A model generated the notes under the pieces. That model had not been told where the DNA came from. It did no database searches and saw only the letters and a program-made list of their open reading frames with translations. A DNA stretch of 64,000 nucleotides. Origin: Pseudodesulfovibrio aespoeensis Aspo-2 (lineage in GTDB: Bacteria > Desulfobacterota > Desulfovibrionia > Desulfovibrionales > Desulfovibrionaceae). Below, piece by piece: positions 37,239 through 53,600 of the stretch. A program made the translations under genes and the position numbers. The DNA is taken from assembly GCF_000176915.2 (NCBI RefSeq), contig NC_014844.1:1240001-1304000 (forward strand), read 5' to 3'. Positions within the stretch are counted from its first letter, which is position 1; each line of letters opens with the position of its first letter.

Positions 37239-38327
37239 TTACTGCGTCGGAACAGTCAGTTGAAGTTGTGACTCTTGTCCGCCTTTATCCATCAGAGTAA
37301 AGGCGAGCATGATGAATGAGAACACTTTTTTTGTCATAATGTCATGATCGTCAATCCAAAACCAATTGCCCCGATATTGAACCATTGCAAAGGCATCTTC
37401 AGGTTTAGCCTTCGAATAACGCACCATCCCTTCGCGGAAGAGCCCGTCATCGTCGGGCGTGGGCATCCCCGGGAGCGCCTTGTGTGACGAGACATCGCCT
37501 TCGGGCATATCAACACGGCCGGAAACCGAAGCAAGAACCTGTGCAAGCGAATATGTTTGCAGCATTATGACCTGGTCGCTGAACGAAGTTGCCCCAAATC
37601 CCAGAACATAACTGTCCCTGGACTGATCCAGACCCAGCAAGCCTTTAAGTTCTTGCACTTGAGCGACTTCCACAGGCCCCATATTGTGTCCGCCAAATCG
37701 CAATCGAAGGGGTGATGGCTCTCCGAGGGTATGGGTGCCTCTTTCCAAATGCAATGCGTTGGATGTTTGCAGGCTGGCAATAAGCTTCACAGCCTGAACA
37801 AATTGAGGATCAACCGGCCGATACCCTTTTGAAGTCAAGGTTTCATTGCGCAATCCATTGATGCTTCGAACTCCCAAACGGAGAAAGAACTCGGCGGAAG
37901 CGCCGGACTCAATGCTCATCAGCATGTTTTGCAACGGCATGGGAGACATTATCCCCCTGAAAAAAGCCATTCCTGTCAACGGACGGTATGTAATGGTCGG
38001 CCTGTCGGTGTATTTGGACATTGCTCCCAGTTCGAACAAGGCGGAATCATTGCCCGCTCGATCAAACAGGGAGAATGTTCCTCTGGCATCAGCCCCGGTC
38101 TCCAGAGAGTATGCTGCGACAATCTCCCCAACATCAATAAAAGAAAGAGGCTCAACGTACCGGATCTTTACGACGTTCAAGAGAATCTGTCGTTTCCAGG
38201 AGTCGGTGAGAGACATATTGTATTCAATGCGATCTCTTTCCACATGTTTCGGACCTATGGCGGCACAGCCAGCCACAAGAGTCGACAGCAGCAAAAGAAG
38301 TGCGGCAATACAAACGATATGTCTCAT
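37239..38327 (-). CDS. Conserved-looking lipoprotein of unknown function
   Basis: A 362-residue protein with a clear lipoprotein signal (MRHIVCIAALLLLLSTLVAGC; Cys at about 21). The mature part begins with IGPKHVERDRIEYNMSLTDS and has no enzyme motif that I recognise; it has alternating beta-rich and short helical segments and no further membrane helix except a weak hydrophobic patch near VFSFIMLAFTLMDKG. It is the last gene of a three-gene run with the two alpha/beta hydrolases (19-base gap). The ATG at 38327 is chosen over a GTG one codon earlier. The function is unknown; a surface or periplasmic partner of the hydrolases is possible. Confidence 0.75.
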   Translation of the reverse strand: MRHIVCIAALLLLLSTLVAGCAAIGPKHVERDRIEYNMSLTDSWKRQILLNVVKIRYVEPLSFIDVGEIVAAYSLETGADARGTFSLFDRAGNDSALFELGAMSKYTDRPTITYRPLTGMAFFRGIMSPMPLQNMLMSIESGASAEFFLRLGVRSINGLRNETLTSKGYRPVDPQFVQAVKLIASLQTSNALHLERGTHTLGEPSPLRLRFGGHNMGPVEVAQVQELKGLLGLDQSRDSYVLGFGATSFSDQVIMLQTYSLAQVLASVSGRVDMPEGDVSSHKALPGMPTPDDDGLFREGMVRYSKAKPEDAFAMVQYRGNWFWIDDHDIMTKKVFSFIMLAFTLMDKGGQESQLQLTVPTQ

Positions 38328-38349
38328 CACCCAACCCCCTGCTCAACTG

Positions 38350-39606
38350 CTATTTCAAAACCTCATCAAGCCAATCAAAAAGAACGGCACCAACCAGACT
38401 GCGATTTTCCATGAGGCAGTGATTCGTGGCCCCTTCATCGGATGGCGTGATAACCATCTTGCTGCGAGAATCCGTGAAGCCGTCCAATGCAATTTTCTGC
38501 TGCCGCTGAACTTCCTTGCTGCGGTATTCACCTTCACCCATCAGCAGCAAGGCTGGCACATGAATCTTCGTGGAATCAAAAGTGTTGCCTCGATTTGCCT
38601 CAATGAGCTGCGACGGCTTATCCACCCCGTATCGCCAGCAGATGGCGTCAACAACGGCCGCATGGAATGGAGTCCATGACTTCATATCTTTTTCCGTAGC
38701 AAAGGCCGCAGGCATGGTGGCAAACAGCGCATACGCATCAACAACCCCGGAACTCATGGCTATGGCCTTTATGCGCGGATCATGCATGGCAGCCTGCGGA
38801 ACAAACAAACCGCCACCGCTGATGCCGTAAGCAGCGAGCATGGCAGGATCTACGTCAGGACGACTGAGAGCGTAATCCACAACGGCCTTCATCGGGACAT
38901 TTGTATCGGTCCGGAATACGTGGCCGTAATGCGGCAACATGCCCTGGCCCGGCAGGTCGATGGTCATGAAGTTATATCCGCGATCATGAGACTGCCGAGC
39001 GATGTAGAAGAAGAGATCTTCTATGTATGTTTCACCGCCGCCAATCATCAGAAGCGTCTTGGCAGGTTTGCCGGAGTTGTCCGCTTTGCGGAAAAAACCG
39101 GGAAGCACCGTGTCCTCAAACGGTACCTCAAAATATTCAAGAGGCGGATCAAACAGTTGCCCGGCCTGTTTCATGAGGCTGCGGCATTTCTTTCCACGCT
39201 TCTCCAGTTCGGGGTTATCCCCTGGCATTGCCATCAATGAAATACGGTAATAGTACGCGGCACGAAGCAATTGCTCACGCGCACTGACTCTGTGTCCGGC
39301 TTTCAGGGCTTTGTCGCCCCGAGCTTCTACGCGTTTCGCAAGTGCGTACCACTCTGAATGCCAGCTTGCTGTATCGCCGTCCTTTATCCGCGAAGCGGCA
39401 TAGAAGGCTTCACCGACCTCGGCTCCTCCATTTGTGACTGCGCCAAGAATGATGTTGCCGAAATGGAAGTCCATGTCAGAATCATTGAAGAAATAACTGA
39501 ACGTGGTCGCATGTGCGTCAAATGCATTTCCATCCTCGGCATGCACATTGCTCAGCGGCAGAAGAAGAACAGCAAAACTCACGAGAAACGATACATAATT
39601 TTTCAT
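38350..39606 (-). CDS. Exported alpha/beta hydrolase (FrsA/DUF1100-like)
   Basis: A 418-residue protein with a signal peptide (cleavage near NVHA-EDG). After a helical N-terminal region (about 45-150, including SAREQLLRAAYYYRIS), the hydrolase core shows the oxyanion region LLMIGGGETYIEDL, the nucleophile elbow AAYGISGGGLFVP, an acid in LLLMGEGEYRS and a late His in GATNHCLMENRS. This organisation matches FrsA-like esterases. It is paralogous to the next gene upstream (both share the AREAYLRA-type helix and DNSGK segment). Substrate unknown. Confidence 0.85.
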   Translation of the reverse strand: MKNYVSFLVSFAVLLLPLSNVHAEDGNAFDAHATTFSYFFNDSDMDFHFGNIILGAVTNGGAEVGEAFYAASRIKDGDTASWHSEWYALAKRVEARGDKALKAGHRVSAREQLLRAAYYYRISLMAMPGDNPELEKRGKKCRSLMKQAGQLFDPPLEYFEVPFEDTVLPGFFRKADNSGKPAKTLLMIGGGETYIEDLFFYIARQSHDRGYNFMTIDLPGQGMLPHYGHVFRTDTNVPMKAVVDYALSRPDVDPAMLAAYGISGGGLFVPQAAMHDPRIKAIAMSSGVVDAYALFATMPAAFATEKDMKSWTPFHAAVVDAICWRYGVDKPSQLIEANRGNTFDSTKIHVPALLLMGEGEYRSKEVQRQQKIALDGFTDSRSKMVITPSDEGATNHCLMENRSLVGAVLFDWLDEVLK

Positions 39607-39615
39607 GATTCCACC

Positions 39616-41334
39616 TTACTGCATAGGCTTGGCTCGTTCATCAAGCCAGTTAAGGATACGTTCGCTCGAAACAAGAGGGGCACCCGCCTGACAATGAAAT
39701 TGCGCCCCCTGGTCACTGGTAAACTCATAATAAGACTTATTTGTCTGCAAACCGTTATAAAACTTCTTGGCCTGTTCGTAAGATCCAGCAATCTGGTCAC
39801 CACTGGAATTGAGCACGAGCATTTCTGTTTCAATTTTTTCAAGAACATCTTCCATGCTGTATTTCTTCAGCTTGGAGAACAGCTCAAACGGTGAACCCGC
39901 ATCAAAGGTCCACAGCATCTGGTTGATGAATTGATTCAGGTCAGGATGCTTTTTCATTTCCGCATAGGCCAACGCATTCACCTTCTCCTTGCGGCTTGAT
40001 TTGCCCACACCCTCCCTCACCTCGGCAGGGAACTTGGTCATGGTGCCGTCAAAAACACTGTATACACCGCCATTCACAATGCCCCAGCGTATACGCTTCT
40101 CAAAGGCCAAAGCACGCGGCACAAGATAGCCACCCATGGAATACCCCATGATGGCGAGACGATCGGCATCGACCTCGGAACGGGTCAGCGCATAATCAAC
40201 TATCGGACTGACGACCTTTTCCCAGTCGTGGCGGAACGGCAATTTCTGGCTGCCTATGACCTCGCCCTGTCCCGGACCTTCATAAATCAGGCAGTTGTAT
40301 CCTCGTTTGGCGGCAGGTACGCCAAGAAAGAAGTAGAGGTCTTCGGCAGTGCCATCGAGCCCTGTCTGGATGAGCAGCAGGGGACGCTTCTTCCCGCTAT
40401 TATCTGCTTTGATGAAATATCCGGGAAGTGTGGTTTTCTCGTAAGGGATTCGGACAGGCTCGATCAAACCGCCCGACAGTCTTGCCGCCTTGAGAAAAGT
40501 GTTTCGCCCCTTTTCCCAAGCCGCATGTTTGCGTGGATCCGTTGCCGGGAGATAGACCTCGCTGGCGCGATAATAGTTGGTCGCCCGCAAATACGCTTCC
40601 CTGGCACTGCGTCCATGCAGAGAAGAAGCAAATTCATCTCCCACCGCTCGCACTTTGTCCGCCATGGAGGTCCATGAGGTGTACCAGCTTTCCTTGTTGA
40701 AGTCTTCGATGCGGCTCGTAACGGTCAGAACCTCGCCAAGATCGGACCCCCCCGAAGCGATGACGCCGAAACGCCAAAGACTATGAAAGACAAAGGAGGA
40801 ATCATTGAACTGGAACTTGTTCAACGCGCGCTCTTCAATATCCCGCGGATTGTTGTTGGGTTTGCCGCGATACGTGTCCCAACTCGTGATGGCGCCGCCA
40901 ATGTAGACCTGTTGCGGAAGGGGGAAATGCGTATGGATAAACACCCAGTTCCTTTCGGCGCCGGCATGCTTCACAAGGGCATCCGCTATGGCATTGAGCA
41001 TGCCGTGGACATCGTCATCACTAAAGAATCCTGGGACATACAAATCGACAAACGTCGGTGAGCCATTCTCTTTTCCTTCGTACACGGCATGATCGAACGT
41101 CTGCCAATAGTACGTAATGAAAGACTCTTTTATGCCTGTTTCCTTGCTCACATCCTTGCTGACCAGGGCCAACACCTTGTTGACATCCAGGTCACGGGGC
41201 GGCGAAGTGATCTTCACCATGGGATCGGCAGGATCAATGCCTCCGGAAGCCACGGCAGCCGTCTGAAACAAAACAACTGAGGCAATCAGCACAAATGGAA
41301 CAAGCCATTTCTCAGAAACACTCAAATGACGCAT
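39616..41334 (-). CDS. Exported alpha/beta hydrolase with N-terminal tautomerase-like domain
   Basis: A 572-residue protein with a signal peptide (about residues 1-28). Residues ~35-150 read like a fused 4-oxalocrotonate-tautomerase-type unit: SPTFVDLYVPG, a helix DDDVHGMLNAIADALVKHAG, then NWVFIHTHFPLPQQVYIGG. The Pro is internal, so N-terminal proline catalysis is not possible as drawn. The rest is an FrsA-like hydrolase with nucleophile elbow IMGYSMGGYLVP and a late His in GAQFHCQAGAPL. AGGAGAGG precedes the ATG. It starts the hydrolase-lipoprotein run and has the TTCACGT repeat 125 bases upstream. Confidence 0.85.
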   Translation of the reverse strand: MRHLSVSEKWLVPFVLIASVVLFQTAAVASGGIDPADPMVKITSPPRDLDVNKVLALVSKDVSKETGIKESFITYYWQTFDHAVYEGKENGSPTFVDLYVPGFFSDDDVHGMLNAIADALVKHAGAERNWVFIHTHFPLPQQVYIGGAITSWDTYRGKPNNNPRDIEERALNKFQFNDSSFVFHSLWRFGVIASGGSDLGEVLTVTSRIEDFNKESWYTSWTSMADKVRAVGDEFASSLHGRSAREAYLRATNYYRASEVYLPATDPRKHAAWEKGRNTFLKAARLSGGLIEPVRIPYEKTTLPGYFIKADNSGKKRPLLLIQTGLDGTAEDLYFFLGVPAAKRGYNCLIYEGPGQGEVIGSQKLPFRHDWEKVVSPIVDYALTRSEVDADRLAIMGYSMGGYLVPRALAFEKRIRWGIVNGGVYSVFDGTMTKFPAEVREGVGKSSRKEKVNALAYAEMKKHPDLNQFINQMLWTFDAGSPFELFSKLKKYSMEDVLEKIETEMLVLNSSGDQIAGSYEQAKKFYNGLQTNKSYYEFTSDQGAQFHCQAGAPLVSSERILNWLDERAKPMQ

Positions 41335-41458
41335 TGGTACCTCTCCTGCTTGGGCATGCCTTTGGGACAGCGCCAATTCCCATTCGAATTGGCTGACTCC
41401 GCATGAATTGCCGACATGATCAACCCACTGTGTCGGAAAACACGCACAAGTCACGACC

Positions 41459-41482
41459 ATTTCACGTGAAATGACGTGAAAT
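41459..41482 (-). promoter_or_regulatory. ACGTGAA direct-repeat site A
   Basis: The palindrome ATTTCACGTGAAAT (41459-41472) is followed by a second ACGTGAAAT, giving ACGTGAA at 41464 and 41474, exactly one helical turn apart. It lies about 125 bases upstream of the hydrolase gene start (41334). The same arrangement occurs at 47025 and a near-copy at 49169. Confidence 0.55.
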
Positions 41483-41512
41483 GATTCATTAACAGCTTGA
41501 AATGATGACTTA

Positions 41513-42694
41513 TTATGCCCGAAGGGCGTCAATGGGATTCATGCGGGATGCCTGCCGGGCCGGGTAATACCCGAAGAACATGCCGACAGCCGCTGAAACA
41601 CCGACTCCGAGGATTGCGGCAATCTGGGAAACAAAAAATTCCCATCCGGTAAAACGGCAGATAATGGCCACAGTGCCAACCCCGAGACCCAACCCGACAA
41701 CACCGCCGATGAATGACAACAGCACGGATTCGACCAAGAATTGCAGCTGAATGTCACTCTGTTCCGCCCCGATGGCCCGGCGAATGCCGATCTCCTTGCG
41801 CCGCTCGGAAACCGAAACCAACATGACGTTCATGACACCCACACCACCGACAATGAGCGAGATCGATCCGATGGCGCCCAGCAACAACGTGAACATCCGC
41901 ATTTGCCGATCCATCTGGGCCACCAGTTCCTCGGCGCTGGTCATGCGCACATTCTGCCGGGAAGCGTATTGGAAATACTCCTTCAGCTGGGTCTCGGCCT
42001 GACTGCTGATCCCATTGCCGACCATTCGAGCGCCGAACACATTGATTTGAGGTCGATCCGAATGACGCATGGCAGCACTGATGGGCACCATGACGCCTTC
42101 GTTGATCTCATAGGGACTGAACGTCCCCGATGGGACCGCTCCGGCAACACCGATCACGGTAAACACTCTGTCGGCAAACACGACCTCACTGCCGACAGGA
42201 TCTTGCACGCCCATCTCTGCCAGCCAGCGGGCCTTGGTGCTGCCCAGGACACAAAAATTCGCATATCCATCAAGGTTCGAGATAAACCGCCCAGCCACAA
42301 TGGGCACCTTGAATATGTCCATGAATTCACCGGTCACCCCCAGCCCTGGAGAGGAAACCCTTTGGCCGCCATGGGTGAGTCTGGAATACAGGGAAACATA
42401 GGGGGCAACCGACTTGATGGTCGAGCATTGCCCGGGGATGCGATGAATCACTTCGAGGTCCATCCCCTTGTTCCGGGAACGCGCCTCTCCCTGCCCGGCC
42501 AAACGAACCAGACAGATATCCGTGCCCATCTCACGAAACTGACGGACAGCTTCATTTTCGACGATCTGCCCGACCGTCACCATGGCAATGACAGAACCGA
42601 TGCCGATGACAATGCCGATCAAGGCAAGGAGCGAGCGTTGCTTGGCGCTCCACAACGAACGCACTGATTCCACTATGTTTTCAGTGAGAATCAT
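41513..42694 (-). CDS. MacB-like ABC transporter permease
   Basis: A 393-residue permease of the FtsX/MacB type: one N-terminal helix after NIVESVRSLWSAKQRSLLALIGI, a large periplasmic domain (about 45-265) and three C-terminal helices with VGGVGVMNVMLVSVSERRKEIGIRRAIGA before them. The protein ends DALRA, as MacB does. The ATPase is a separate gene, overlapping by four bases (ATGA). It works with the PAS-linked fusion protein and the TolC-like protein upstream as a tripartite exporter. Confidence 0.9.
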   Translation of the reverse strand: MILTENIVESVRSLWSAKQRSLLALIGIVIGIGSVIAMVTVGQIVENEAVRQFREMGTDICLVRLAGQGEARSRNKGMDLEVIHRIPGQCSTIKSVAPYVSLYSRLTHGGQRVSSPGLGVTGEFMDIFKVPIVAGRFISNLDGYANFCVLGSTKARWLAEMGVQDPVGSEVVFADRVFTVIGVAGAVPSGTFSPYEINEGVMVPISAAMRHSDRPQINVFGARMVGNGISSQAETQLKEYFQYASRQNVRMTSAEELVAQMDRQMRMFTLLLGAIGSISLIVGGVGVMNVMLVSVSERRKEIGIRRAIGAEQSDIQLQFLVESVLLSFIGGVVGLGLGVGTVAIICRFTGWEFFVSQIAAILGVGVSAAVGMFFGYYPARQASRMNPIDALRA

Positions 42695-43359
42695 TGCGGC
42701 TCCACCAATCCATCCAACATGCGGACAGACCGCCCGCACAATCTGGCGCGTCCCGGATCATGGGTAATGATGATGACGGTAATGCCTTCATTGCCGTTCA
42801 ATGAAAGGAATAAATCCATGATCTCGGAACTGGTAACAGAGTCCAGCGCCCCGGTGGGTTCATCCGCCAGAATAAGCGAAGGGCTGCCGCACAAGGCTCG
42901 GGCTATGGCAACCCGCTGCTGCTGCCCGCCGGACAACTCGCCGGGCCGGTGGCTCTCCCTGTCACTCATCCCCACCTTGGAAAGCATCTCCCGCCCCTGC
43001 TCCTTCCGCTCCTTCGTCGGGATTCCCCTGTACAGCAAAGGGAGGCAGACGTTATTGAGGGCCGTCAGCTTTGGCAGCAGATTGAACTGCTGGAAGACAA
43101 ACCCGATCCGTCTGTTTCGAATGCGCGACAGCTCATTGTCTGAAAGTCCCTCAGCCGAACGCCCCTCAAAGTAATAGGCTCCGGAAGTGGGTTGATCCAA
43201 AAATCCAAGGATGTTCATGAGAGTGCTCTTGCCACATCCGGATGCCCCGACAACGGCGAGCATCTCTCCCTGGTCCACGCGCAAGTCCACCCCTTTCAAG
43301 ATTTCGACATTCATTGCCCCAAGGCGATACGATTTGTGAATATCCCTCAGATCTATCAC
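42691..43359 (-). CDS. MacB/LolD-type ABC transporter ATPase
   Basis: A 222-residue stand-alone ATPase with Walker A GASGCGKST, Q-loop FVFQQFNLLP, signature LSGGQQQRVAIARAL, Walker B LILADEPTGALD and switch His in IIITHDPGRA. It belongs to the MacB/LolD group that powers export from the inner membrane or periplasm. It overlaps both neighbours by four bases (fusion protein upstream, permease downstream), so the three are made together. Confidence 0.93.
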   Translation of the reverse strand: MIDLRDIHKSYRLGAMNVEILKGVDLRVDQGEMLAVVGASGCGKSTLMNILGFLDQPTSGAYYFEGRSAEGLSDNELSRIRNRRIGFVFQQFNLLPKLTALNNVCLPLLYRGIPTKERKEQGREMLSKVGMSDRESHRPGELSGGQQQRVAIARALCGSPSLILADEPTGALDSVTSSEIMDLFLSLNGNEGITVIIITHDPGRARLCGRSVRMLDGLVEPQ

Positions 43360-45107
43360 GGCTGACCCGAGATTGTCGGACCAATGAGGATGGTCGCACC
43401 TGGTTTGAGGCCGGAAACGATTTCAACCTCGGTCAAGGTCGTATCCCCGGTTTCCACCATTGTTTCCCTGACCGATCCGTCTGCCTCCACCACATGAACG
43501 CTGATGCCCTCCCCGGATCGATGCACAGCCGTCAAGGGCACAAGCAGCGCCTCCGGATTGGAGTAGGTCTGAACCTGCATGTTGGCAGTCATGCCCAGGC
43601 GCACCTGCTTCCCGACATCGTCAGGGAGGTCGCGCAGCCGTATGGTCGTGGTAAAGGTCGGAACCTGTCCCTCGTTGGCTTGCGAGGATATCTGCGCAAT
43701 AAGCCCTTTGAGCTGAATATCAGGAAAGGCATCGCCTGACACGAGCACAGGCTGCCCTTTTTCAAGGCTGTTGATATCCAGTTCGTCTACTTCGGTAGTG
43801 ATGGAAAGCCCTTCGAGGCTGCCAATGGAGAGAAGGGCCTGTCCCTCAGCCACAGACATCCCGGTCTCGACATTCTTCGCGTCCTTGTCCTTTGCGCTTG
43901 GCCGGATGGCTATCCCTGAAACCGGAGCCTTGATTTCCGCCTGTTCCAGTTTCTCCTCGGCGGCCTTCATCTTTGCCTCGGCATTGTCCAGTTCCATGCG
44001 GGCGATTTCAAGGTACTCGGCATCCCCTTTGCCCAGGGTCGACTGAAGGCTTTCAAGGCTTGAAAAGTATTGCATTTTCTTGTCGCCGACATCCTGCACG
44101 GAAGAGTCATACTCACTTTTGGGTATGATCCCCTGTTCATACAACGTCTTGTCTTCGGAAGCCTTGTTCTCTGCCTGTCTGAGCAGCCCTTTGGCCTGAT
44201 TCAAAGAGCGTTTCGCCTTGGAAACGTCGGGAGTTTTCTCCCACCCCTCAAGCTCAAGAGTCTTTTTCTTGGCCTTGATGTATTCAGCGCGCGCCTCCCG
44301 GACCTTGGCGACCATCTCGGCGGTATCCAGGACAAGCAAGGTCTGCCCTCGCTCAACGCTGTCGCCATAGAAGAACTGCTTGCTCTGAATCTTGCCCTGG
44401 AACGGAGCCGCCAAGGTGACCTCCTCCAATGGCGCCACAATCCCGGAAAGAGAGATGGTTCGCGTCACGGGCCGCGCGTTGACAACCATGGAATTCTGCG
44501 GCTCGCTCTCGCCACTTCGTCCTGCAATCGACGCCCCTTGAACCTCCATGAGCGAACTGCCGAACCAGTGAAAACTCCCGAGGCCGAGGAACAGGATGAG
44601 AATGGCGGCAGACAGCCAGTTGCGTATTCTCAGCCCCTGATGCAGAGCCGCTTCCAACGCTCTCCCATTTTCATCGGCCTGCCGCAGGGCGGCTTTCAGC
44701 TCCTCATTGAGCGAACGTTCGTTCGCCTTGAGTTCCTCCATCTCCGTTGCATCACGCAGGACCAGGAATGCTCCCTCGATTTTTCCGGACTCATTGCGCA
44801 AATGGGATGCTGTCACAGCAAGGGGAAGAGCGGTGCCATCCGGGCGGACATAGTCGACGAGTCTGTTATGAATAGCGGTTCTTTCGTAGACAGAGTCCAA
44901 CAGGACTTGCAAAAAGGCATCGTTGCCTTCTCGCTCAAGGGTGATTCTGGCAAGAGTCAGATTGCCATCGTCCATATTGATCGCCATCATGGAAGAAGCT
45001 GCCGGATTTCCACCGACAATCACCCCTTCGGCATTGAGGACCACGACCCCGTCGTTCATGTGTCGCAGGATACTGTCAGTAAAAATTCTTTCCCACTGTA
45101 TTGCCAT
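43356..45107 (-). CDS. PAS domain fused to a MacA/HlyD-type membrane fusion protein
   Basis: A 583-residue protein with an unusual order: cytoplasmic PAS domain (about 1-125; DGVVVLNAEGVIVGGNPAAS and an ALPLAVTASHLRNESGKIEG-like core ending in the TEMEEL linker), a coiled coil (about 125-160), one membrane helix (NWLSAAILILFLGLG, about 165-185), then a MacA-type adaptor. That part has the sandwich half IVAPLEEVTLAAPFQGKIQS, a long helical hairpin (about 255-385), then APVSGIAIRPSAKD and barrel segments. The start follows GGTGG, two bases after the upstream stop. Sensing from inside could gate export. Confidence 0.9.
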   Translation of the reverse strand: MAIQWERIFTDSILRHMNDGVVVLNAEGVIVGGNPAASSMMAINMDDGNLTLARITLEREGNDAFLQVLLDSVYERTAIHNRLVDYVRPDGTALPLAVTASHLRNESGKIEGAFLVLRDATEMEELKANERSLNEELKAALRQADENGRALEAALHQGLRIRNWLSAAILILFLGLGSFHWFGSSLMEVQGASIAGRSGESEPQNSMVVNARPVTRTISLSGIVAPLEEVTLAAPFQGKIQSKQFFYGDSVERGQTLLVLDTAEMVAKVREARAEYIKAKKKTLELEGWEKTPDVSKAKRSLNQAKGLLRQAENKASEDKTLYEQGIIPKSEYDSSVQDVGDKKMQYFSSLESLQSTLGKGDAEYLEIARMELDNAEAKMKAAEEKLEQAEIKAPVSGIAIRPSAKDKDAKNVETGMSVAEGQALLSIGSLEGLSITTEVDELDINSLEKGQPVLVSGDAFPDIQLKGLIAQISSQANEGQVPTFTTTIRLRDLPDDVGKQVRLGMTANMQVQTYSNPEALLVPLTAVHRSGEGISVHVVEADGSVRETMVETGDTTLTEVEIVSGLKPGATILIGPTISGQP

Positions 45108-45109
45108 GC

Positions 45110-46717
45110 TTACCACCATGTCCATATGAGCGGTCTGACCTCGTCATTCAACTCTTTTTCCAACGCGGCATCGTTCTGTTTGAACTCGATTTTCCACGTG
45201 TCCATGGTAGTGCCGAGCAATTGATCCAACTCCAAAAGGGACTGAAGATAGGCGATGGAGCTGGCAACTTCATCCTGTTGCGCCTGGACCAACTGGTCCT
45301 GATAGGTGACCACCTGGAAATTGGTGGAACGCCCTGTCATGAGTTTGGTGTTTTCATTCTGCAACTGCAAAGCCTTGAGTTCGGTATTGCGTTTCGCCAG
45401 CGAGATGAACTTGAGCCGCATATTCACATTGCGAACCGTATTTGCGACCGTGGTTTGCAGATCTGTTTCAGCCTTTTCCAAATCAATTTTCGCGCGCCGC
45501 TTATCTGCAACAGCCTGCAGGAGCACCTGTTTTCTATCCAGGTAGTCCGCGCCCCATAAGTTGATGGGGGCGCTGAGCTCTATGCCGGCTTTGAACTCGG
45601 TATCGGTATGGTTGTAACCGGGGTTGTCATTGGAATACGCCTCGCCGTATCCACTTTTGAGCGACAGATCCCACATGCGCTCGTTCTCAGTCATCATGAA
45701 GCGCGTTTCCGCTTCGGTTACAGCAAAAACCTTATCCAGATAAGACTGATTGTTCTTCACGGCGACAACCATGCAGGCGTCCAAATCCGGTGTGATTATC
45801 GGATAATCCTCTTTCACCGGCTCAATGACTATATTCGGATCAAGGTTCAGAAAGTTGAGTAGGTTACGTCTGGCATCGTCATAACTGTTTCGAGTTTGCT
45901 CCAAGGACAGTTCCTGCGACGCTTCGTCGGCTTCGGCCTGAATTACGTCACTCTGCGACATGCGCCCCAACGTCATCTTGAGACGATTGGTCTCCAGCAG
46001 CCGTTTGGATCGACCGAGCGCCTGTTCCTGAATCGCCAGATTTTCCTTTGCCTGAACAAAGGTGAAAAAATAGTTCACGCCTTCATTGATCAAAGCGCTC
46101 AATGTGTCGCGCAGATTCAATATGTTCCGCTGCTCCTGGATACGGGCAAGTCGGACGGAGGCCATGTTGTAGTCGATACCCCCACCCTTGAGGAGCGGCT
46201 GGGTGAGATCTATGCCCCAGGAAGACGTGTGCCCGCCAGACTTGCTGTTGCTGCGATCGACACTCCCGGAAGCGCTGTTGTAGGAAAGGGAACCATCGCT
46301 ATTGTCCTTATACGTATTGTCCCAAGTGAATGTCAGGGTTGCGCCTGTCGGCACCTTCTGGTCCACCGTTGCCTTGGCTCCGGCCTCCTTGGTGGTCGAG
46401 GACGCTTTTTGGGCATCCCCCCGCATTCGCTTGTTCCTCTCAATGGTTTCAAGATTGACCGTTCCGTCGATGTTGACATTGGGTTCAAACTTGGCTTCTG
46501 CCTGCTCAATGCCGAATTTTTCAAGAACCCGGCTCAAATAGGTGGTCTGCACATTCAGATTGTTCCGCAAAGTCAGCCCGACAACTTCACCCATGCTCAG
46601 TTGAAGCACCGTCGGTTCCGCGTTGTCCGGGACGCTTGCAGCCTGAGATTGCCCCCCATACGCCACCATGAACATGCAGCCGACAATGATCCACACTGAC
46701 CGCTGATATTCTCTCAA
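45110..46717 (-). CDS. TolC-family outer-membrane efflux protein
   Basis: A 535-residue TolC-like protein with signal peptide (ending near SQA-ASVP). TolC features are LSMGEVVGLTLRNNLNVQ at the N-terminus and paired long helices in both repeats, for example AKENLAIQEQALGRSKRLLE and KFISLAKRNTELKALQLQN. A TTG start at 46717 is chosen because GAGGAG lies six bases upstream; the longer frame to 46762 lacks a site. It heads the exporter operon (outer-membrane channel, PAS adaptor, ATPase, permease). Confidence 0.87.
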   Translation of the reverse strand: MREYQRSVWIIVGCMFMVAYGGQSQAASVPDNAEPTVLQLSMGEVVGLTLRNNLNVQTTYLSRVLEKFGIEQAEAKFEPNVNIDGTVNLETIERNKRMRGDAQKASSTTKEAGAKATVDQKVPTGATLTFTWDNTYKDNSDGSLSYNSASGSVDRSNSKSGGHTSSWGIDLTQPLLKGGGIDYNMASVRLARIQEQRNILNLRDTLSALINEGVNYFFTFVQAKENLAIQEQALGRSKRLLETNRLKMTLGRMSQSDVIQAEADEASQELSLEQTRNSYDDARRNLLNFLNLDPNIVIEPVKEDYPIITPDLDACMVVAVKNNQSYLDKVFAVTEAETRFMMTENERMWDLSLKSGYGEAYSNDNPGYNHTDTEFKAGIELSAPINLWGADYLDRKQVLLQAVADKRRAKIDLEKAETDLQTTVANTVRNVNMRLKFISLAKRNTELKALQLQNENTKLMTGRSTNFQVVTYQDQLVQAQQDEVASSIAYLQSLLELDQLLGTTMDTWKIEFKQNDAALEKELNDEVRPLIWTWW

Positions 46718-46770
46718 AGGCTTCTCCTCAAACACATCAGGAACACAGGGGGGTTGCCGCACCGGCCTAA

Positions 46771-46894: not shown

Positions 46895-47024
46895 CGCGTT
46901 CCGACTATTTCAACGACCTGCTAAGACCAAGACTTGCCGGTTCAGACTAATTTTCTTCAGAGAGACAAACATTTCAGATAGATACCAAACTCTGCAACAC
47001 GCATGGAATTGTCAATTCCATTCA

Positions 47025-47041
47025 ACGTGAATTCACGTGAA
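47025..47041 (-). promoter_or_regulatory. ACGTGAA direct-repeat site B
   Basis: ACGTGAA at 47025 and 47035 (ten-base period), overlapping the palindrome TTCACGTGAA. It is about 310 bases upstream of the TolC-like gene, of which 124 bases are the palindromic element at 46771-46894. The organisation equals site A at 41459-41482. Confidence 0.55.
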
Positions 47042-47199: not shown

Positions 47200-47220
47200 A
47201 AAGCCACGTAACCATCCAGT

Positions 47221-47622
47221 CTACTGCGAAGGGCATCCCTTGGCGGTCATGGCCGAAGGGGACCAGCTAAAATGCTCGGCATTTTTTGTGTAGACAACAC
47301 AGTACTGGTAATTACTCATTCCGATTGACTTGTAACAGGGCTCAAGCCCCAGTCGGTTTTCCCATATGGCATACCCCACAAGGGAAGCCATCTCGACTCC
47401 GCAGATGAGCTCGACGAGCCCAGGGCTGGAGGCTGCATTTTGCAAGCCAGCCTCTTTGATTTTGTTGGCTTTCTGGTCCGAAGCAGGCGCATTCGAGAGA
47501 TAATCCTCGATGACACTCCTTAATCTGCTTCCGGCAGGATCTGTGTCACCCGCCCACGCTGGAACAGAGATCAACACCCCTGCCAGAGCTACAACTGCCA
47601 AAAATGACGCTATTCCTTTCAT
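47221..47622 (-). CDS. Small exported protein of unknown function
   Basis: A 133-residue protein with a clear signal peptide (hydrophobic core FLAVVALAGVLISV, cleavage near AWA-GDTD). The mature chain has four Cys (ELICGVE, EPCYKS, YQYCVVY, KGCPSQ), suggesting disulfides outside the cytoplasm. The core SSPGLVELICGVEMASLVGYAIWEN (quoted in part: LICGVEMASLVGY) is not a motif I know. GAGGAGG precedes the ATG. It is the last of three secreted-protein genes on this strand and is followed by a strong terminator. Confidence 0.72.
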   Translation of the reverse strand: MKGIASFLAVVALAGVLISVPAWAGDTDPAGSRLRSVIEDYLSNAPASDQKANKIKEAGLQNAASSPGLVELICGVEMASLVGYAIWENRLGLEPCYKSIGMSNYQYCVVYTKNAEHFSWSPSAMTAKGCPSQ

Positions 47623-47666: not shown

Positions 47667-48050
47667 TTACTCTACTACGACAAATCGAAGCGAGCAGGAG
47701 TCCCCCTCCTCCGAGATTGAAGCGCAACTGGACTTCCCGACCTGAACAGGACATTGCCCATTGTTTGACAGAATGATGTACTCGCATGTGTCATGAAACG
47801 TTATCTCCCACTTAGGAACCAAAGCGCCTTCCTTGTGCGTGGTCTCACTTTTGGAAAAACGTACTGTCCCGTCTTTCGCCACAACTCGGCTGATTTCCCG
47901 TTTCCCATCCCAGGAACTCGTTGAGAGCCGAACGGTCAGCTCCTTGCCTGTCTTGTTGACCACTTCGATGGCAACCCCGTCATCAGCATGGGCCGTCACA
48001 GCACCAAGAAAGAGCAGACACACAATGATAAGACATCGTATTCCATTCAT
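47667..48050 (-). CDS. Small exported protein of unknown function
   Basis: A 127-residue protein with signal peptide (CLIIVCLLFLGAVTAHA, then DDG). The mature part looks like a single beta-sandwich (VAIEVVNKTGKELTVRLS at the start) with three Cys (DTCEYI, GQCPVQ, SSCASI and a fourth in DSCSLRF), likely disulfide-bonded. No family is recognised. GAGGTG precedes the ATG, and it lies between two other secreted-protein genes (44- and 120-base gaps). Confidence 0.7.
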   Translation of the reverse strand: MNGIRCLIIVCLLFLGAVTAHADDGVAIEVVNKTGKELTVRLSTSSWDGKREISRVVAKDGTVRFSKSETTHKEGALVPKWEITFHDTCEYIILSNNGQCPVQVGKSSCASISEEGDSCSLRFVVVE

Positions 48051-48170: not shown

Positions 48171-48653
48171 CTAATTCGCGTTACGCACCGGCCATATATA
48201 GGAGTACGTGCCTTCACGGGCATATGTTTTCACTTCCCCGGTCTTCATATACACTGTGTAGTTGCGATAGTACTCCTTCCACGGATCATATTGCGAAACA
48301 GTGCTCGACCAATGAGGGATGGTATCAGGGTATCGCATGTCAAATGGATGGCTGCCGCTGCCCATATGGGAATAAAGCTCCACAAGCTCATCTTTTGTTG
48401 GAAGCCGCCATCCGCCTTTGCCGCCCAAGCTGCAGGAGGATACAGCCGCCAGAGCTTGATCCCACTTCATATACTCGTATGGGGTTGCCTTTTGGGACCA
48501 CATCAATCCTGACATCGTATCCGTGACCGTGCCGTCCTTGTTGTCGACAAAAGTCTCTGCATGCAAATTACCTACACAAGCAAAAAACAACACGCCGCAC
48601 GCGAGTATGACTTGAGCAAAACACCTTATGCTCTTCAAATTTGAACTACGCAT
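48171..48653 (-). CDS. Exported DUF1566-domain protein
   Basis: A 160-residue protein with signal peptide (about 1-31, ending NLHA). The mature part matches DUF1566 (Lcl C-terminal domain): FVDNKDGTVTDTMSGLMWSQ, GGWRLPTKDELVELY and a final YIWPVRN segment. These domains occur in surface or secreted proteins and are usually followed by a strand-rich fold; biochemical function is unknown. GGAGG precedes the ATG. It is the first of the three secreted-protein genes. Confidence 0.82.
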   Translation of the reverse strand: MRSSNLKSIRCFAQVILACGVLFFACVGNLHAETFVDNKDGTVTDTMSGLMWSQKATPYEYMKWDQALAAVSSCSLGGKGGWRLPTKDELVELYSHMGSGSHPFDMRYPDTIPHWSSTVSQYDPWKEYYRNYTVYMKTGEVKTYAREGTYSYIWPVRNAN

Positions 48654-49168
48654 TTTCCCTCCGGTTAATTCGCTGTGTAATACGGTTGCCGGGCTGCAAA
48701 AAATTACCATACAACGCCCCGAGGCAAGGGGATTCAGTCCCACACATGAACTAGACGGCTTTATGATTCCTTCGTCAATTTTATTCCGTGTGAATCCAAG
48801 TGAAGATACGCACCGAGCCGACAACACACTATTTTTTCCAAATCCACGTGTCGAGCCATGGTCGGGTTGTTCAGAGAGGTGGTCTCGGAAAGCTTGACTC
48901 TGCCCTCCATGCCTCTTTCGGCATAGGCGAACTCTTCACCAAGAATTCCACAGCCGTTGCGCTTGCGCTCCTCTGGAAAAAGTGTCGTCATGCTCTTATG
49001 TGCAACGCTGCGTCGCCAGATGTAGTCGGCGATCGCAGTCGGCTGTCCAAATCGGCGGTTCGGGGTGGTTAAGCCCAACTGGAAACATATCGAGTCTCCG
49101 GCAATTTTTCTTACTTCATGAAAAAACAGGAGAAGTTACTTCGTCTCCGCAGGCCGCTCTTCCTTAAG
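48654..49168. other. Intergenic stretch without a supported gene
   Basis: About 500 bases between divergent genes. Open frames exist on both strands (about 90-105 codons) but start at TTG or weak ATG codons, have no ribosome sites and show no recognisable motif. Nothing else is seen before the TTCACGT repeat at 49169. Confidence 0.5.
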
Positions 49169-49223
49169 TTCACGTTTTTCACGTCAACATTTCTTGACAG
49201 CATTTGCGCGCTGGTGCTTAGTT
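49169..49223 (+). promoter_or_regulatory. TTCACGT direct-repeat site C and TTGACA promoter element
   Basis: TTCACGT at 49169 and 49178 (nine-base period) resembles sites A and B, read on the other strand. It is followed ten bases later by TTGACA (49194-49199) and, about 18 bases on, TTAGTT (49218-49223). The repeat lies about 120 bases upstream of the esterase start, the same distance as site A from its gene. Confidence 0.5.
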
Positions 49224-49302
49224 AATAAAATCAATAATTAAAATGTGTTGTAGTGGGACTGCTGCGCTTTCAAGTGCGAAAAATTATGATTGGATCAAAG
49301 CA

Positions 49303-50367
49303 ATGCAGATCAAGAGAGCCTTATATGCACTGATACTCCTCACGGCAGGGCTTTTTCTGTTTTGGTGGGTCCAGGGAGCGCTCGGCCCTGACGAACCACG
49401 GGGGGCGCTAGCAAGTCCATCCACCAGCATGCTATCCAATGATGCAATGGATCACATCAGCCCTCAAGCCAGAGCATTCATTGCCGCCAACCGCCCTCTG
49501 ACTCTGGATGGACCGCTGACTCCAGAACGAGCACGGCAAATGCGAAAACAGCAGGCCGTAGCAGAAGAAGAATCCTTGAACGCCCTCCAGAACTCTCTGG
49601 GGTTTTTCACGCAGGAACGAGTCATTCACGGGGTGAGGGTGCTCGTCATCACACCCAGGGGATATGCCAAATCCAATGACGGAAAAATGGCCATGTATAT
49701 TCACGGAGGCGGCTATGCTCTGAAGTCGGCGCTTGATGCCTCTGCCGTCCTCATGAGCAGTGCCTTGGGACTCCGTGTCTTTTCCATTGAATACCGATTG
49801 GCGCCGGAACACCCCTTCCCGGAAGCCTTGCGCCAATGTCTGGCCGTCTATGAAGAGCTGGTGCAGGAGTTCGACCCGCAAGACACGGTCATGTTGGGCG
49901 GCTCCGCAGGAGGCGGCCTCGTTCTCGCCACGCTACTCAGCGCGCGTGACAACGGGTTGCCCCTTCCCAAAGCCGTAGGATTGTTTTCTCCCTGGTCCGA
50001 CCTCACGCGGACCGGCGACAGTTATTACGCCAACGAAGGGCGCGACCCGATCCTGAAGTGGGAAGGGAATATTGAGTATTTCGCGGCAAGTTATGCTGGC
50101 GGGAATGACCCCAGGCAGCCCCTCTTGTCGCCCGTATATGGCGACTACACAGGCTTTCCTTCGACAATGATCATCTCTGGAACCCGCGACCTTTTCCTGA
50201 GCAACAGCGTGCGTCTCAGTCGAGTGATGCAACGGGCCGGGGTTGTAGTTGAGCTTCAGATTTGGGACGAAATGTTCCACGGCTTCGACCTGATGCCTGA
50301 CCTGCCGGAAGGCAAAGAGGCCCGGCAAACGATGTCTACGTTCCTGCTTGATGCCCTTGCACAATAA
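49303..50367 (+). CDS. Membrane-anchored HSL-family alpha/beta hydrolase (esterase)
   Basis: A 354-residue protein with one N-terminal membrane helix (about 6-25) as an uncleaved anchor, so the enzyme likely faces the periplasm. The hormone-sensitive-lipase family motifs are HGGGYAL (oxyanion hole) and GGSAGGG (nucleophile Ser; usually GDSAGG), with Asp in SGTRDLFL and His in EMFHGFD completing the triad. EYRLAPEHPFPEAL is also typical. The ATG at 49303 is preceded by GGATCAAAGCA; an ATG at 49243 lacks a site. It carries the shared TTCACGT repeat upstream. Confidence 0.87.
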   Translation: MQIKRALYALILLTAGLFLFWWVQGALGPDEPRGALASPSTSMLSNDAMDHISPQARAFIAANRPLTLDGPLTPERARQMRKQQAVAEEESLNALQNSLGFFTQERVIHGVRVLVITPRGYAKSNDGKMAMYIHGGGYALKSALDASAVLMSSALGLRVFSIEYRLAPEHPFPEALRQCLAVYEELVQEFDPQDTVMLGGSAGGGLVLATLLSARDNGLPLPKAVGLFSPWSDLTRTGDSYYANEGRDPILKWEGNIEYFAASYAGGNDPRQPLLSPVYGDYTGFPSTMIISGTRDLFLSNSVRLSRVMQRAGVVVELQIWDEMFHGFDLMPDLPEGKEARQTMSTFLLDALAQ

Positions 50368-50641: not shown

Positions 50642-53600
50642 ATGATGCTGCCTGCAATGAACTCGCGCCTGCGCTCAATGTACTTTCTCCTGTTCTTCAT
50701 GAGCATGGCACTTACACTTGCCGGGTGCTCTTCTGAAAATCAGACCCCGAAGGTTGTGGATGGTGTCATTGATTTGTCTTCGTGGGATTTCAATGCCAGC
50801 GGACCGGTGCGGCTTTTCGGTGACTGGGAATTTGGGTGGACAGACGCTGACCCAGTGAGTTTTGCGAACAACACCGGAAAAAAAGATTATTTCTCCGTTC
50901 CGCACCTGTGGCATGGGCGAACCGCCGCGGGGGTGGAATTGTCTCCCACGGGGAGTGCGGTTTACCGTCTGCAGATTCGCATGCCGAACAACCATCCTGA
51001 ACAGATGGCTGTGTTGGTGGCTGGGAGCATGTCAGTCTGTGAGATTTGGATCAATGGTTCAAGAATGGCGGCCAGTGGGGTGGTCGGTTCTGATGCACAG
51101 ACTGAAGAGCCCAGAGCACACTATGTAATTGCAGAGTCGCCGAAGCCCACGCGGCTTATGGAAATCATGCTTCTGGTTTCCAATCACCACAATGTGCAGG
51201 GCGGGTTGAACGGCGACGTATTGCTTGGTTCGTCTCAACAAATTGACGAATTTTACAGCACACCCAGACTGCTTGGGGCGAGCATGGCCGGAGCTTTGTT
51301 TTGCCTGAGCATTCTCCACATCGTCCTTTTCTATATGCGCCGTTCGAGCAAGGAAAATCTGTATTTCGGGCTGTTCAGCCTGTTCTGGTGCATGGCGATC
51401 CTCTTCAGCCCGTCTTCCGGTTTTTTGATGACGGTTTTCGCCCCGTCAATTCCATGGGGGTGGTACATAAACCTTTCCCTCTTGCCCTATGGGGTGACAA
51501 TCCCGTTGATGCTGCTGTTTTACCACAGTTTGTTTCCCAAAAAATACGGAAAGGCCGTAGAGCGGGTGTATTTGGGCATCGCCTTGGCATACATGATCTA
51601 TATTCTTCTGACTCCGCCCAATGCGTATGATGTAGTCCTTCTCATCTATTGCATCATGAGCGGGATTGCTCTTTTGTACATGTTTGTATGTTACTCTATA
51701 GACTTGCTGCACAAGGAGAAGGGTGTTTCCATACTTTTGTTAGGGTATCTGGCCCTTGGGCTCGCGGAACTGGATGACATGTTTTTTGACCTGAATATTA
51801 TTGATGTCGCATCTCTCCGTCCAGTGGGAGTGCTTTTCTTCATTTTCTCATATGCGTTTTACCTCGCATTCCGTTTTTCCACCGCACTCACCAAGACGGA
51901 AATTCTTTCCAAAGAGTTGGAGCAGAAGAACATTCGCCTTCTACAACTTGACAAGCTGAAAGATGAATTCCTGGCCAACACCACACACGAGCTGAAGACG
52001 CCTCTTGCCGGCATGGTCGGCATTGCGGAATCCCTGGTTGCCGGAACCGCAGGCGGAGTGTCCAGGACCGTCGCTGCCCATCTGAATGTCATCGCGCATA
52101 GCGGGAAACGCCTTTCCAAGCTTATCAATGATGTGTTGGATTTGTCTCGATTGAAGAATCAGGACATTGCCCTGAGATTGGAGGTAGTGAATCTCTACGC
52201 TTCGGCGCAACGCGTTTTGGCTTTGGCCCAGGCATTGAACCGAGGAGGAAAAACAATACTTGCCAATGATGTCCCGGCAGATTTTCCAGATGTCGTGGCT
52301 GACCCTGATCGTCTTGAGCAAGTGTTGTTCAATTTGATCGGAAACAGTCTCAAGTCAACGGCGAGTGGGCGCATTTCGATTGCAGCGACCAATTTGGGTG
52401 ACCGGGTCGAAATCGCTGTCACAGACACAGGATGTGGAATAGCCGCTGAGGATCAGGCAAGAATCTTCAATGCCTATGAGCAAGGGTCGTATTCCAGCGC
52501 CGGCGGTACCGGGCTGGGACTCTCCATTTCCCGCTATCTTGTTGAACTGCACGGTGGCGTGCTTGATGTTAAGTCAGAAATGGGGGTGGGGAGCAGCTTT
52601 TATTTCACGCTTCCCCTGGCAGTAGGTTGTGCGTTGGATCTGGTTGAGCACTCCGTCCATTCAAGCACCCCTTCCACACCTTCTCTGATCCCAAGAGGAA
52701 CACCTTTGACCGAGGACTTGCCTCCTGTCATTCCCGCTGATCTCTTGCTGCGCGATACGGGGGTTGCCGGCGGAAAATATCAAGTGCTGGTGGTGGACGA
52801 CGAACCGGTTAATTTGCAGGTTGTTGCAGCTATATTGAATATTGAAGGGATCTCCTTCCGCACTGCCGCAAATGGTGCAATGGCCTTGCGCATGCTTGAG
52901 GACGGCGATCAACCGGACATGGTTTTGCTTGATGTGATGATGCCTGACATGAGCGGCTATGCCGTCTGCCGGGAGTTGCGCAAGACATATCAGGCTTCAG
53001 TCCTGCCCATAGTCCTGCTGACAGTGAAGAACCGTGTTGAAGATATTGTGGAAGGGTTTTCTGCCGGAGCCAATGACTATCTCACCAAGCCATTTGCCAG
53101 GGAAGAACTCGGGGCTCGTGTGGCACTTCAGATCAAACTGAAGGCGGCATACGAGATTTTGGAAGAGAATCTTGAACTCAAACGCGAATTGGATCTGCGC
53201 AGGAAAACAGAGAGTGGCCTTCGCTTCATGCAGGCGCGTTTGGCCAAGATTCTCGATTCTCTGGACGATGCAATTGTTGGCGTGAATGTGAGCAGTGAAA
53301 TCGCCTTTTGCAATCAATCGTTCAGAACTCTTGTCGGAGGAGACGGTGATTCCCTCCTCGGACATCCTTTGACATCCATCATGGTTGCCCCTGAAGAACA
53401 GTGTGCAGCAGAGCTTCTGGGTTTCGTAGCAGGCGCGTCCGACAGAGACGGAAGTCCGGTACTGTTTGACACGGTTTCTCTTGTTTCCGGTGGTGAGAGT
53501 TTCGATACCTCCATTTGGTGCAACGTGGTTGAGCTTGAGGAAGAGACACTGTGTTTGTTGTCTGTGTACTCTGCAAAAGCATGGAATACAGATGGTGGTG

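What the first reader, a model, noticed from the sequence alone, without database searches (positions are those of the whole stretch)
37239..46717. Candidate new system: PAS-gated exporter with exported hydrolases and a lipoprotein
A TolC-like channel, PAS-adaptor, ATPase and permease are followed on the same strand by two paralogous exported hydrolases and a lipoprotein of unknown function, with matching operator repeats before each operon. Together they could export a lipid-like or acylated product and process it outside, or protect the envelope from such a compound.
Basis: inference. Interest (0 to 1): 0.7.

Follow-up and report, generated by a model that had tools for sequence, protein, structure and literature searches.

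The report
Receptor-controlled exporter and envelope hydrolase cluster
A bacterial exporter whose adaptor carries its own sensor domain sits beside a set of exported enzymes under one shared genetic switch, and that switch is most likely a membrane receptor that binds DNA directly, like the chitin sensor ChiS of Vibrio.

Summary
The seven genes and both operators are real, but they are two separable modules. The exporter (TolC, PAS-fused adaptor, ATPase, MacB-type permease) keeps its gene order in 16 of 16 class loci read; the hydrolase pair plus lipoprotein mostly lives without it. They adjoin in 3 of those 16 loci, all one genus; in one they form a single run of genes.

Regulation joins them. 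TTCACGT-N3-TTCACGT-N9-TTGAC precedes tolC, hyd1 and (3 mismatches) an Lcl-domain gene; a 9-bp-period form precedes an esterase. The whole 3.63-Mb genome holds three sites at up to 3 mismatches, all here. Of 247 class genomes, 19 hold the element at up to 1 mismatch, and all 19 encode one C-terminal domain found in 23. In the window this domain ends the 7TM hybrid kinase at 50642-54094, outside the given coordinates. It matches the ChiS DNA-binding domain (PDB 7kpo, E 8.8e-25; model TM-score 0.84). A ChiS-type membrane receptor is therefore the probable switch.

PAS gating of the exporter is plausible (conserved DxT motif, fixed linker) but unproven; cargo and enzyme substrates are unknown. Verdict: new variant of known kinds.

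The parts
45110..46717 (-). tolC-like outer-membrane channel (TTG start at 46717 after GAGGAGA; the ORF is open to 46762)
   Evidence: Pfam OEP 104.5 bits; start region read
43356..45125 (-). PAS-MFP: cytosolic PAS (aa 17-133), coiled coil, one membrane helix (~aa 171-190, by eye), HlyD/MacA-type periplasmic adaptor
   Evidence: Pfam PAS 35 bits, HlyD_D23 57 bits; NCBIfam RND_mfp 143.5 bits over cut-off 94.9; alignment of 16; linker check
42691..43359 (-). ABC ATPase of the MacB/LolD type
   Evidence: Pfam ABC_tran; NCBIfam LolD 241 and MacB 242 bits, both under their cut-offs
41513..42694 (-). MacB-type permease without fused ATPase; its ATG overlaps the ATPase stop (ATGA)
   Evidence: Pfam MacB_PCD 102.6 and FtsX 76.0 bits; start region
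39616..41334 (-). hyd1: exported alpha/beta hydrolase (GYSMG nucleophile motif) with an extra N-terminal region of ~150 aa
   Evidence: PDB 3fnb E 4.8e-25
38350..39606 (-). hyd2: exported alpha/beta hydrolase (GISGG motif)
   Evidence: Pfam FrsA-like 31.4 bits over cut-off 22; PDB 3fnb E 8.4e-46
37239..38330 (-). lipoprotein of unknown family, core partner of hyd2 (GTG 38330 or ATG 38327)
   Evidence: model pLDDT 72.8
47011..47041 (-). operator/promoter element before tolC, 0 mismatches
41450..41480 (-). operator/promoter element before hyd1, 1 mismatch (GTGAC for TTGAC)
48774..48804 (-). weaker element (3 mismatches) before the Lcl_C-domain gene
   Evidence: sites of the same kind before the homologous gene in G087 and G193
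49169..49198 (+). element with 9-bp repeat period before the esterase gene, 0 mismatches to that variant
   Evidence: expected 0.00 in shuffles
48171..48653 (-). exported Lcl_C (DUF1566-type) protein
   Evidence: Pfam Lcl_C 70 bits; start region; homologues before tolC in G087 and G193
47667..48050 (-). small exported protein sm1, no Pfam family
   Evidence: homologues beside the cluster in G087 and G193
47221..47622 (-). small exported protein sm2, no Pfam family
   Evidence: two homologues in G087, one of them behind an exact element
49243..50367 (+). est3: HSL-type esterase (Abhydrolase_3) with a hydrophobic N-terminus
   Evidence: Pfam 160.8 bits; directly after lipo or hyd2 in G158, G173, G184, G162
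50642..54094 (+). 7TMR-DISM hybrid histidine kinase with C-terminal ChiS-family DNA-binding domain (aa ~1051-1150): probable transmembrane transcriptional regulator of the cluster
   Evidence: Pfam 7TMR-DISM_7TM, HisKA, HATPase_c, Response_reg; 7kpo E 8.8e-25; fold match TM 0.84/0.90, rmsd 1.6; co-occurrence with the element

Best explanation
The region is a receptor-controlled envelope cluster made of two modules. A membrane receptor (window 50642-54094: extracellular domain, 7TM, histidine kinase, receiver, PAS, ChiS-family DNA-binding domain) senses an unidentified outside or periplasmic ligand and, while staying in the membrane, binds 10-bp direct repeats TTCACGTN3TTCACGT placed 9 bp before a TTGAC block, switching on (a) an ancestral hydrolase-lipoprotein module that acts outside the inner membrane on an ester- or amide-type substrate and (b), in this genus only, a recruited tripartite ABC exporter. 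The exporter is a split MacAB-type pump with its own TolC, whose adaptor begins with a cytosolic PAS domain joined by a fixed-length coiled coil to its membrane helix; the PAS domain most likely adjusts pump assembly or ATPase coupling to an inside signal, as the cytosolic N-terminus of HlyD does. Shown by computation: anatomy, separability of the modules, the shared element, its association with the ChiS-type domain, the fold of that domain. Inferred: DNA binding by this receptor, activation rather than repression, PAS gating. Unknown: ligand, cargo, enzyme substrates.
For: Element: in the window's genome the repeat pattern without TTGAC has exactly two perfect sites, before tolC and before hyd1; with TTGAC and up to 3 mismatches three sites, all in this cluster, control 0. 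TTGAC was not part of the first search, yet stands 9 bp after the repeat in 10 of 11 sites (GTGAC in the other). Where the hydrolase module is alone it keeps the element: G041, G158 exact, G124 and G207 1 mismatch, G093 2 mismatches. Where both modules adjoin, the exporter has it too: G000, G087, G193; in G087 hyd1 follows the permease after 54 bp with no element between, one run of seven genes. No half-site TTCACGT within 450 bp before tolC in the 13 exporter loci L047-L059. Regulator: of 247 class genomes 23 have the C-terminal domain and 23 have the element at up to 2 mismatches; 20 have both (Fisher 2e-23); at up to 1 mismatch 19 of 19 have the domain; in the 235 genomes not used to find the motif 12 have both, 3 the domain only, 2 the element only, 218 neither (9e-16); with genus held fixed 6e-11; in genus g13 9 of 9 against 0 of 7. 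The domain matches 7kpo, the ChiS DNA-binding domain, which binds DNA by gel shift (PMC8092284, passages read). In G207 a receptor of 549 aa has 7TM plus this domain and no kinase, so the domain is the constant output. PAS: the D of the DxT motif is invariant and T present in 15 of 16 adaptors; no gap between aa 125 and 192 in 14 of 16, and in the other two a gap begins at 192, past the membrane helix. [quoted passage not shown]
Against: Three genomes have the domain without an element at up to 2 mismatches (G128, G154, G094) and three have a 2-mismatch element without the domain (G065, G204, G173). Two of the five residues needed for DNA binding in ChiS (R1074, R1092) align with Q in the window protein; three are kept (R1068, K1078, R1090) (alignment; numbering offset inferred by me). 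Fourteen of 17 PAS-exporter genomes show no sign that the exporter belongs to this regulon, G144 has exporter and hyd2 but neither domain nor element, and hyd2 occurs in 19 genomes without the domain. No conserved -10 box was seen after TTGAC. No Cys, His or Trp is conserved in the PAS domain, so no cofactor can be named. Two related adaptors outside the class lack PAS altogether.
Confidence: 0.72

Rival explanations
1. The two operons are chance neighbours: an ordinary MacAB-like drug exporter next to unrelated esterases.
For: Adjacency in only 3 of 16 exporter loci read, one genus; co-occurrence with hyd2 not significant with genus held fixed (p 0.096); exporter-only loci have varied neighbours.
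Against: The same rare element before both operons in G000 and G193 and a single seven-gene run in G087; exporter genomes carry the ChiS-type domain more often than others, 9 of 17 against 14 of 230, p 1.6e-6, and 0.0013 with genus held fixed.
Confidence: 0.12
2. The element is read by another regulator, for example an OmpR/PhoB-type response regulator (10-bp direct repeats would suit it), and the 7TM receptor merely travels along or feeds it.
For: Direct repeats at about one helical turn fit OmpR/PhoB boxes (recalled, no call); an OmpR-type regulator lies beside the module in G041.
Against: Of the 12 genomes searched that regulator has a clear relative only in G158 (64%); the rest have none at E 1e-20 or only 28-33% paralogues, and the window's genome has none. 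The kinase-less receptors of G158, G124 and G207 still keep the C-terminal domain, which matches a DNA-binding domain with solved structure. Element and receptor go together also where targets differ.
Confidence: 0.12
3. The exporter handles envelope lipids or lipoproteins (LolCDE- or DevBCA-like), and hydrolases plus lipoprotein process the acylated product outside.
For: The ATPase scores 241 bits to LolD; esterases, an HGSNAT-type acyltransferase and a carboxylesterase join the hyd2-lipoprotein pair in other lineages.
Against: LolD, LolCE, DevA, DevB and DevC models all stay below their cut-offs; the permease is MacB_PCD type; those acyl enzymes occur in loci without the exporter.
Confidence: 0.2
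4. The TTCACGTGAA cores are ParB (parS) sites rather than operators.
For: The only other two TTCACGTGAA in the genome lie at bases 78-120 in the sequence TGTTTCACGTGAAACA just before a ParA-like ORF, which I recall as parS-like.
Against: The element is a direct repeat and most copies elsewhere do not contain the palindrome; none of the four window sites has the flanks TGT...ACA.
Confidence: 0.02

Closest known systems
ChiS of Vibrio cholerae (transmembrane transcriptional regulator; ChiS-family DNA-binding domain, PDB 7kpo)
   Same: Membrane hybrid kinase with receiver, PAS and C-terminal ChiS-type domain; sequence E 8.8e-25 and fold TM 0.84. ChiS binds two sites in the chb promoter (PMC8092284, passages). 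The ChiS-domain paper's Fig. 5 legend lists 7TMR-DISM among partner domains.
   Different: 7TMR-DISM sensor; direct-repeat operator described here by comparison; kinase-less versions in G158, G124, G207; target is an exporter plus hydrolases instead of chitin genes.
MacAB-TolC (MacB-type ABC exporters)
   Same: MacA-type adaptor (best PDB matches are MacA), MacB_PCD + FtsX permease, TolC-type channel.
   Different: ATPase and permease are separate genes; adaptor carries an N-terminal PAS domain and coiled coil; dedicated TolC gene.
HlyD of the haemolysin type I system
   Same: Adaptor with a cytosolic N-terminal part needed for TolC recruitment and ATPase activation (PMC4446572, passage).
   Different: There a short helix, here a whole sensor domain; different ABC class.
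SMU_737 (PDB 3fnb), FrsA, Ayg1, AntI and 2,6-dihydroxypseudooxynicotine hydrolase family
   Same: hyd1 and hyd2 match these by sequence.
   Different: Exported (signal-peptide-like N-termini), paired, tied to a lipoprotein; substrate unknown.

Membership tests
ChiS-family transmembrane transcriptional regulators | C-terminal ChiS-type DNA-binding domain (helix-sheet-helix) | tested here: met
   hmmsearch of 9 aligned domains: 7kpo E 8.8e-25, the only PDB hit at E up to 10; model pLDDT 87.9; Foldseek rank 1 7kpo, TM 0.84/0.90, rmsd 1.6, the only hit with E under 0.001
[quoted passage not shown]
   three kept, R1074 and R1092 aligned to Q (numbering offset inferred). The paper calls R1068 poorly and R1074 and R1092 somewhat conserved in the family
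ChiS-family transmembrane transcriptional regulators | binds DNA while in the membrane | not testable with these tools
   only the co-occurrence of domain and element was tested: 19 of 19 genomes at up to 1 mismatch
MacAB-TolC exporters | permease with MacB periplasmic core domain | tested here: met
   MacB_PCD 102.6 bits over cut-off 27
MacAB-TolC exporters | ATPase fused to the permease in one chain (MacB) | tested here: not met
   two genes, 42691-43359 and 41513-42694; filed here as MacB-type, split
MacAB-TolC exporters | MacA-type periplasmic adaptor | tested here: met
   RND_mfp 143.5 bits over 94.9; profile of 16 adaptors: best PDB hit MacA 9qgy E 2.4e-19. The equivalog MacA model NF008606 is not reached (48.3 of 342 bits)
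LolCDE / DevBCA | curated NCBIfam models above cut-off | tested here: not met
   LolD 241 of 307.75, LolCE 32 of 362, DevA 191 of 296, DevB 46 of 129, DevC 15 of 290 bits
FrsA-like / S9-type alpha/beta hydrolases | G-x-S-x-G nucleophile and catalytic His conserved | tested here: met
   hyd1 Ser399 and His547 invariant in 13 sequences (numbers plus 8 for the ATG start); hyd2 Ser263 and His396 invariant in 18; the acid is uncertain in hyd2
FrsA-like / S9-type alpha/beta hydrolases | hydrolase activity | not testable with these tools
   no assay

The most novel reading that the evidence does not exclude
A directly gated tripartite exporter: a cytosolic PAS sensor built into the periplasmic adaptor passes an inside signal through a fixed-length coiled coil and membrane helix to the pump and TolC, while a 7TM receptor with a built-in DNA-binding domain sets, from the outside signal, how many pumps and envelope hydrolases are made. 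Export would be controlled twice, by the outside at transcription and by the inside at the machine.
Probability: 0.3. Interest if true: 0.72.

Novelty: new variant of a known kind. Interest (0 to 1): 0.58.

Why it matters
It turns an anonymous gene row into a testable circuit. Receptors with 7TMR-DISM plus ChiS-type domains were known as an architecture (PMC8092284, Fig. 5 legend); here one such group receives a predicted operator, target genes and a gel-shift test that needs no knowledge of the ligand. Kinase-less versions suggest that the kinase is dispensable for output. The PAS-adaptor family asks whether efflux pumps can be gated by a sensor inside the adaptor; I saw no paper describing it in the listings.

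Tried and rejected
Seven genes as one conserved system: rejected by separate distributions.

OmpR-type regulator of G041 as reader of the element: rejected because it is not conserved.

parS reading of the TTCACGTGAA cores: rejected.

The NtrC-type regulator at 54372-55769 as reader: not tested directly; set aside because the element precedes a TTGAC block rather than a recognised -24/-12 promoter (no sigma-54 scan was run) and because the ChiS-type domain explains the distribution.

Lipoprotein fold: model pLDDT 72.8, pTM 0.67; no Foldseek match with E under 0.001 (best 0.067) and VIA best Z 3.5, so no function inferred. Two long strands (65-85, 98-117) suggest a hairpin but stand in a stretch of pLDDT under 50.

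PAS cofactor: no conserved Cys, His or Trp. Promoter -10: none conserved. Pfam for the receptor's outer domain: nothing for the window protein; a sub-threshold Glyco_hydro_2_N hit (18.5 of 28 bits, E 0.002) in the G207 protein.

Limits: in the adaptor class search only 5 candidates per genome were scored, and 3 in the phylum search, so counts may be low; all 12 genome-search runs are used; G226's exporter surroundings, and the receptor loci of G154 and G094, were not read.


Full report
Observation. The seven genes lie at 37239-46717 on the minus strand: TolC-type channel, PAS-fused adaptor, ABC ATPase, MacB-type permease, two alpha/beta hydrolases and a lipoprotein without Pfam or NCBIfam family. 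ATPase and permease overlap by ATGA; channel and adaptor ORFs overlap too, so the exporter is tightly packed. The hydrolases are 31% identical over 401 columns. G+C is 0.50-0.57 over 36-54 kb against mostly 0.59-0.67 elsewhere in the window, with one other dip at 16-18 kb.

Organism. These are a Desulfovibrionales and a Desulfonatronum assembly, so the window is most likely from the order Desulfovibrionales; this is inference, no name was given.

Two modules. In 247 class genomes a full-length PAS-adaptor was found in 17. The order tolC, PAS-adaptor, ATPase, permease holds in the window and in 15 of 15 relatives read. Outside the class 10 of 379 genomes added by the phylum search match (11 of 395 in that draw including the window's genome and 16 class genomes shown by it); 8 of these 10 have the PAS part, in 9 loci, and G463 and G522 lack it. 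Ten of the 11 loci read there keep the order; L110 has tolC last. In three of them (L100, L101, L102) small STAS and HATPase_c_2 genes stand directly upstream, Pfam-confirmed for L100 and L101. The lipoprotein has strong matches (E below 1e-90) in 11 of 247 genomes and weaker ones in 8, hyd2 in 32 at E up to 1e-60. In 12 named loci from 84,980 species hyd2 stands directly before the lipoprotein in 9, once in pieces; L081 starts at the lipoprotein, L085 and L087 have no hyd2. None of these 12 has the exporter within the DNA held. Other lineages add a carboxylesterase, an HGSNAT-type acyltransferase, an amidohydrolase or a metallo-beta-lactamase-fold protein beside the pair. Exporter and hydrolase module adjoin in G000, G087 and G193 only, of 16 exporter loci read; G193 lacks the lipoprotein. 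Both occur, apart, in G144, G041, G158, G207 and G184.

Shared element. Perfect copies of TTCACGTN3TTCACGT in the genome: two, before tolC and before hyd1. Aligning promoters from nine genomes showed TTGAC 9 bp downstream in 10 of 11 sites, GTGAC in the eleventh (the window's hyd1 site); G087 has no site before hyd1, where hyd1 follows the permease after 54 bp. With TTGAC included and up to 3 mismatches the genome has three sites, all in this cluster, reversed control 0; the window has 3 against 0.00 in shuffles, plus one perfect site of the 9-bp-period form before est3. The third, weaker site precedes the Lcl_C gene; the homologous genes of G087 and G193 have such a site too. The 32 distinct sites held at up to 2 mismatches read TTTCACGTGAATTCACGTGGAATnnnTTTGACA.

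Regulator. A 7TMR-DISM protein stands within about 12 kb of the hydrolase module in 6 of 13 class loci read (window, L045, L060, L061, L063, L065). In the window it is a hybrid kinase. Its last ~100 aa are the best conserved part of its C-terminal region and persist in relatives without kinase: 7TM-PAS-domain in G158 and G124, 7TM-domain in G207. The domain profile hits one PDB sequence, 7kpo (E 8.8e-25), the DNA-binding domain of ChiS (PMC8092284; passages read). The model of the window domain (pLDDT 87.9) superposes on 7kpo with TM 0.84/0.90 and rmsd 1.6.

Association test. In the same 247 genomes the domain was found in 23 and the element at up to 2 mismatches in 23. Table: both 20, domain only 3 (G128, G154, G094), element only 3 (G065, G204, G173, each 2 mismatches), neither 221; p 2e-23. 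At up to 1 mismatch: 19, 4, 0, 224. Leaving out the 12 genomes used to find the motif: 12, 3, 2, 218; p 9e-16. With genus fixed p 6e-11. Reversed-pattern controls matched in two genomes (G075, G222). Of 21 domain loci read, 20 have the 7TM sensor; G244 does not. G065 fits decay: hydrolases intact, only a remnant of the lipoprotein, a 2-mismatch element, no receptor.

Targets elsewhere. Behind the elements of other genomes stand large exported proteins: an autotransporter in G115, FG-GAP proteins in G119 and G072, a tail-collar protein in G023 (Pfam), and by resemblance of their N-termini similar ones in G131, G037, G042, G191, G161, G235 (not Pfam-scanned); a 2-mismatch site precedes hyd2 in G023. 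In G060 no gene was called close behind the element, and the G244 site was not followed. So the receptor group governs surface and secreted proteins in general, and the exporter is a late addition in one genus.

PAS-adaptor. In 16 aligned adaptors (33-78% identity to the window's) the PAS domain ends in DxT (D 16 of 16, T 15 of 16), known to me from memory as the usual exit motif of signalling PAS domains. The stretch from there to the membrane helix has no gap in 14 of 16, and in two a gap begins at aa 192, past the helix. A signal path is therefore likely conserved. No Cys, His or Trp is conserved in the PAS domain. HlyD gives a precedent for a cytosolic adaptor part that controls TolC recruitment and ATPase activity (PMC4446572, passage). 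Reviews of adaptors do not help: 'PAS' is absent from PMC4446572 and from the first 300,000 characters of PMC8277102.

Hydrolases and lipoprotein. hyd1 and hyd2 belong with SMU_737, FrsA, Ayg1, AntI and a C-C hydrolase; nucleophile and His are invariant in 13 and 18 sequences. Substrates cannot be read from this. The lipoprotein fold remains unknown.

Literature. Searches (PAS with adaptor terms; ChiS, 7TMR-DISM, operator terms) listed no paper on this adaptor family or on this operator; I saw listings and, for five papers (PMC8092284, PMC10208484, PMC11856585, PMC13316777, PMC4446572), passages only. PMC8277102 was searched with no passage found.

Judgement. Known kinds combined in a new way, with one strong new result (receptor domain and operator) and one open, more novel question (sensor-gated adaptor).

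Noticed in passing
window 36000-54000: G+C of 0.50-0.57 against mostly 0.59-0.67 around it: the cluster may have been acquired as an island.
   Followed up: no
window ~46730-46870: Inverted repeat (CAGGCTGTTCAAAAATGG ... CCGTTTTTCAACAGCCTG) between the tolC operator and the tolC start, seen by eye; it may be a mobile palindromic repeat.
   Followed up: no
L100 5661-6424, L101 94-847, L102 5764-6517: STAS and anti-sigma-type HATPase_c_2 genes directly before the PAS-adaptor exporter in three genomes outside the class: possible partner-switch control of the same pump.
   Followed up: partly
L065 5931-7577 (= L078): Receptor of 549 aa with 7TM joined to a ChiS-type DNA-binding domain and no kinase or receiver.
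   Followed up: partly
L069 (G065): Hydrolase pair intact but lipoprotein reduced to a remnant, element at 2 mismatches and no receptor domain in the genome: stepwise decay of the regulon.
   Followed up: partly
L208, L213, L220, L205: Autotransporter, FG-GAP and tail-collar proteins stand behind the same element in other genomes: the receptor group seems to govern surface proteins.
   Followed up: partly
lipoprotein 37239-38330, aa 65-117: Model shows two long antiparallel strands of about 20 residues each, at low confidence; could be a membrane-inserting hairpin.
   Followed up: no
G000:C1:78-120: Two TGTTTCACGTGAAACA sites, parS-like from memory, before a ParA-like ORF at the contig start.
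   Followed up: no
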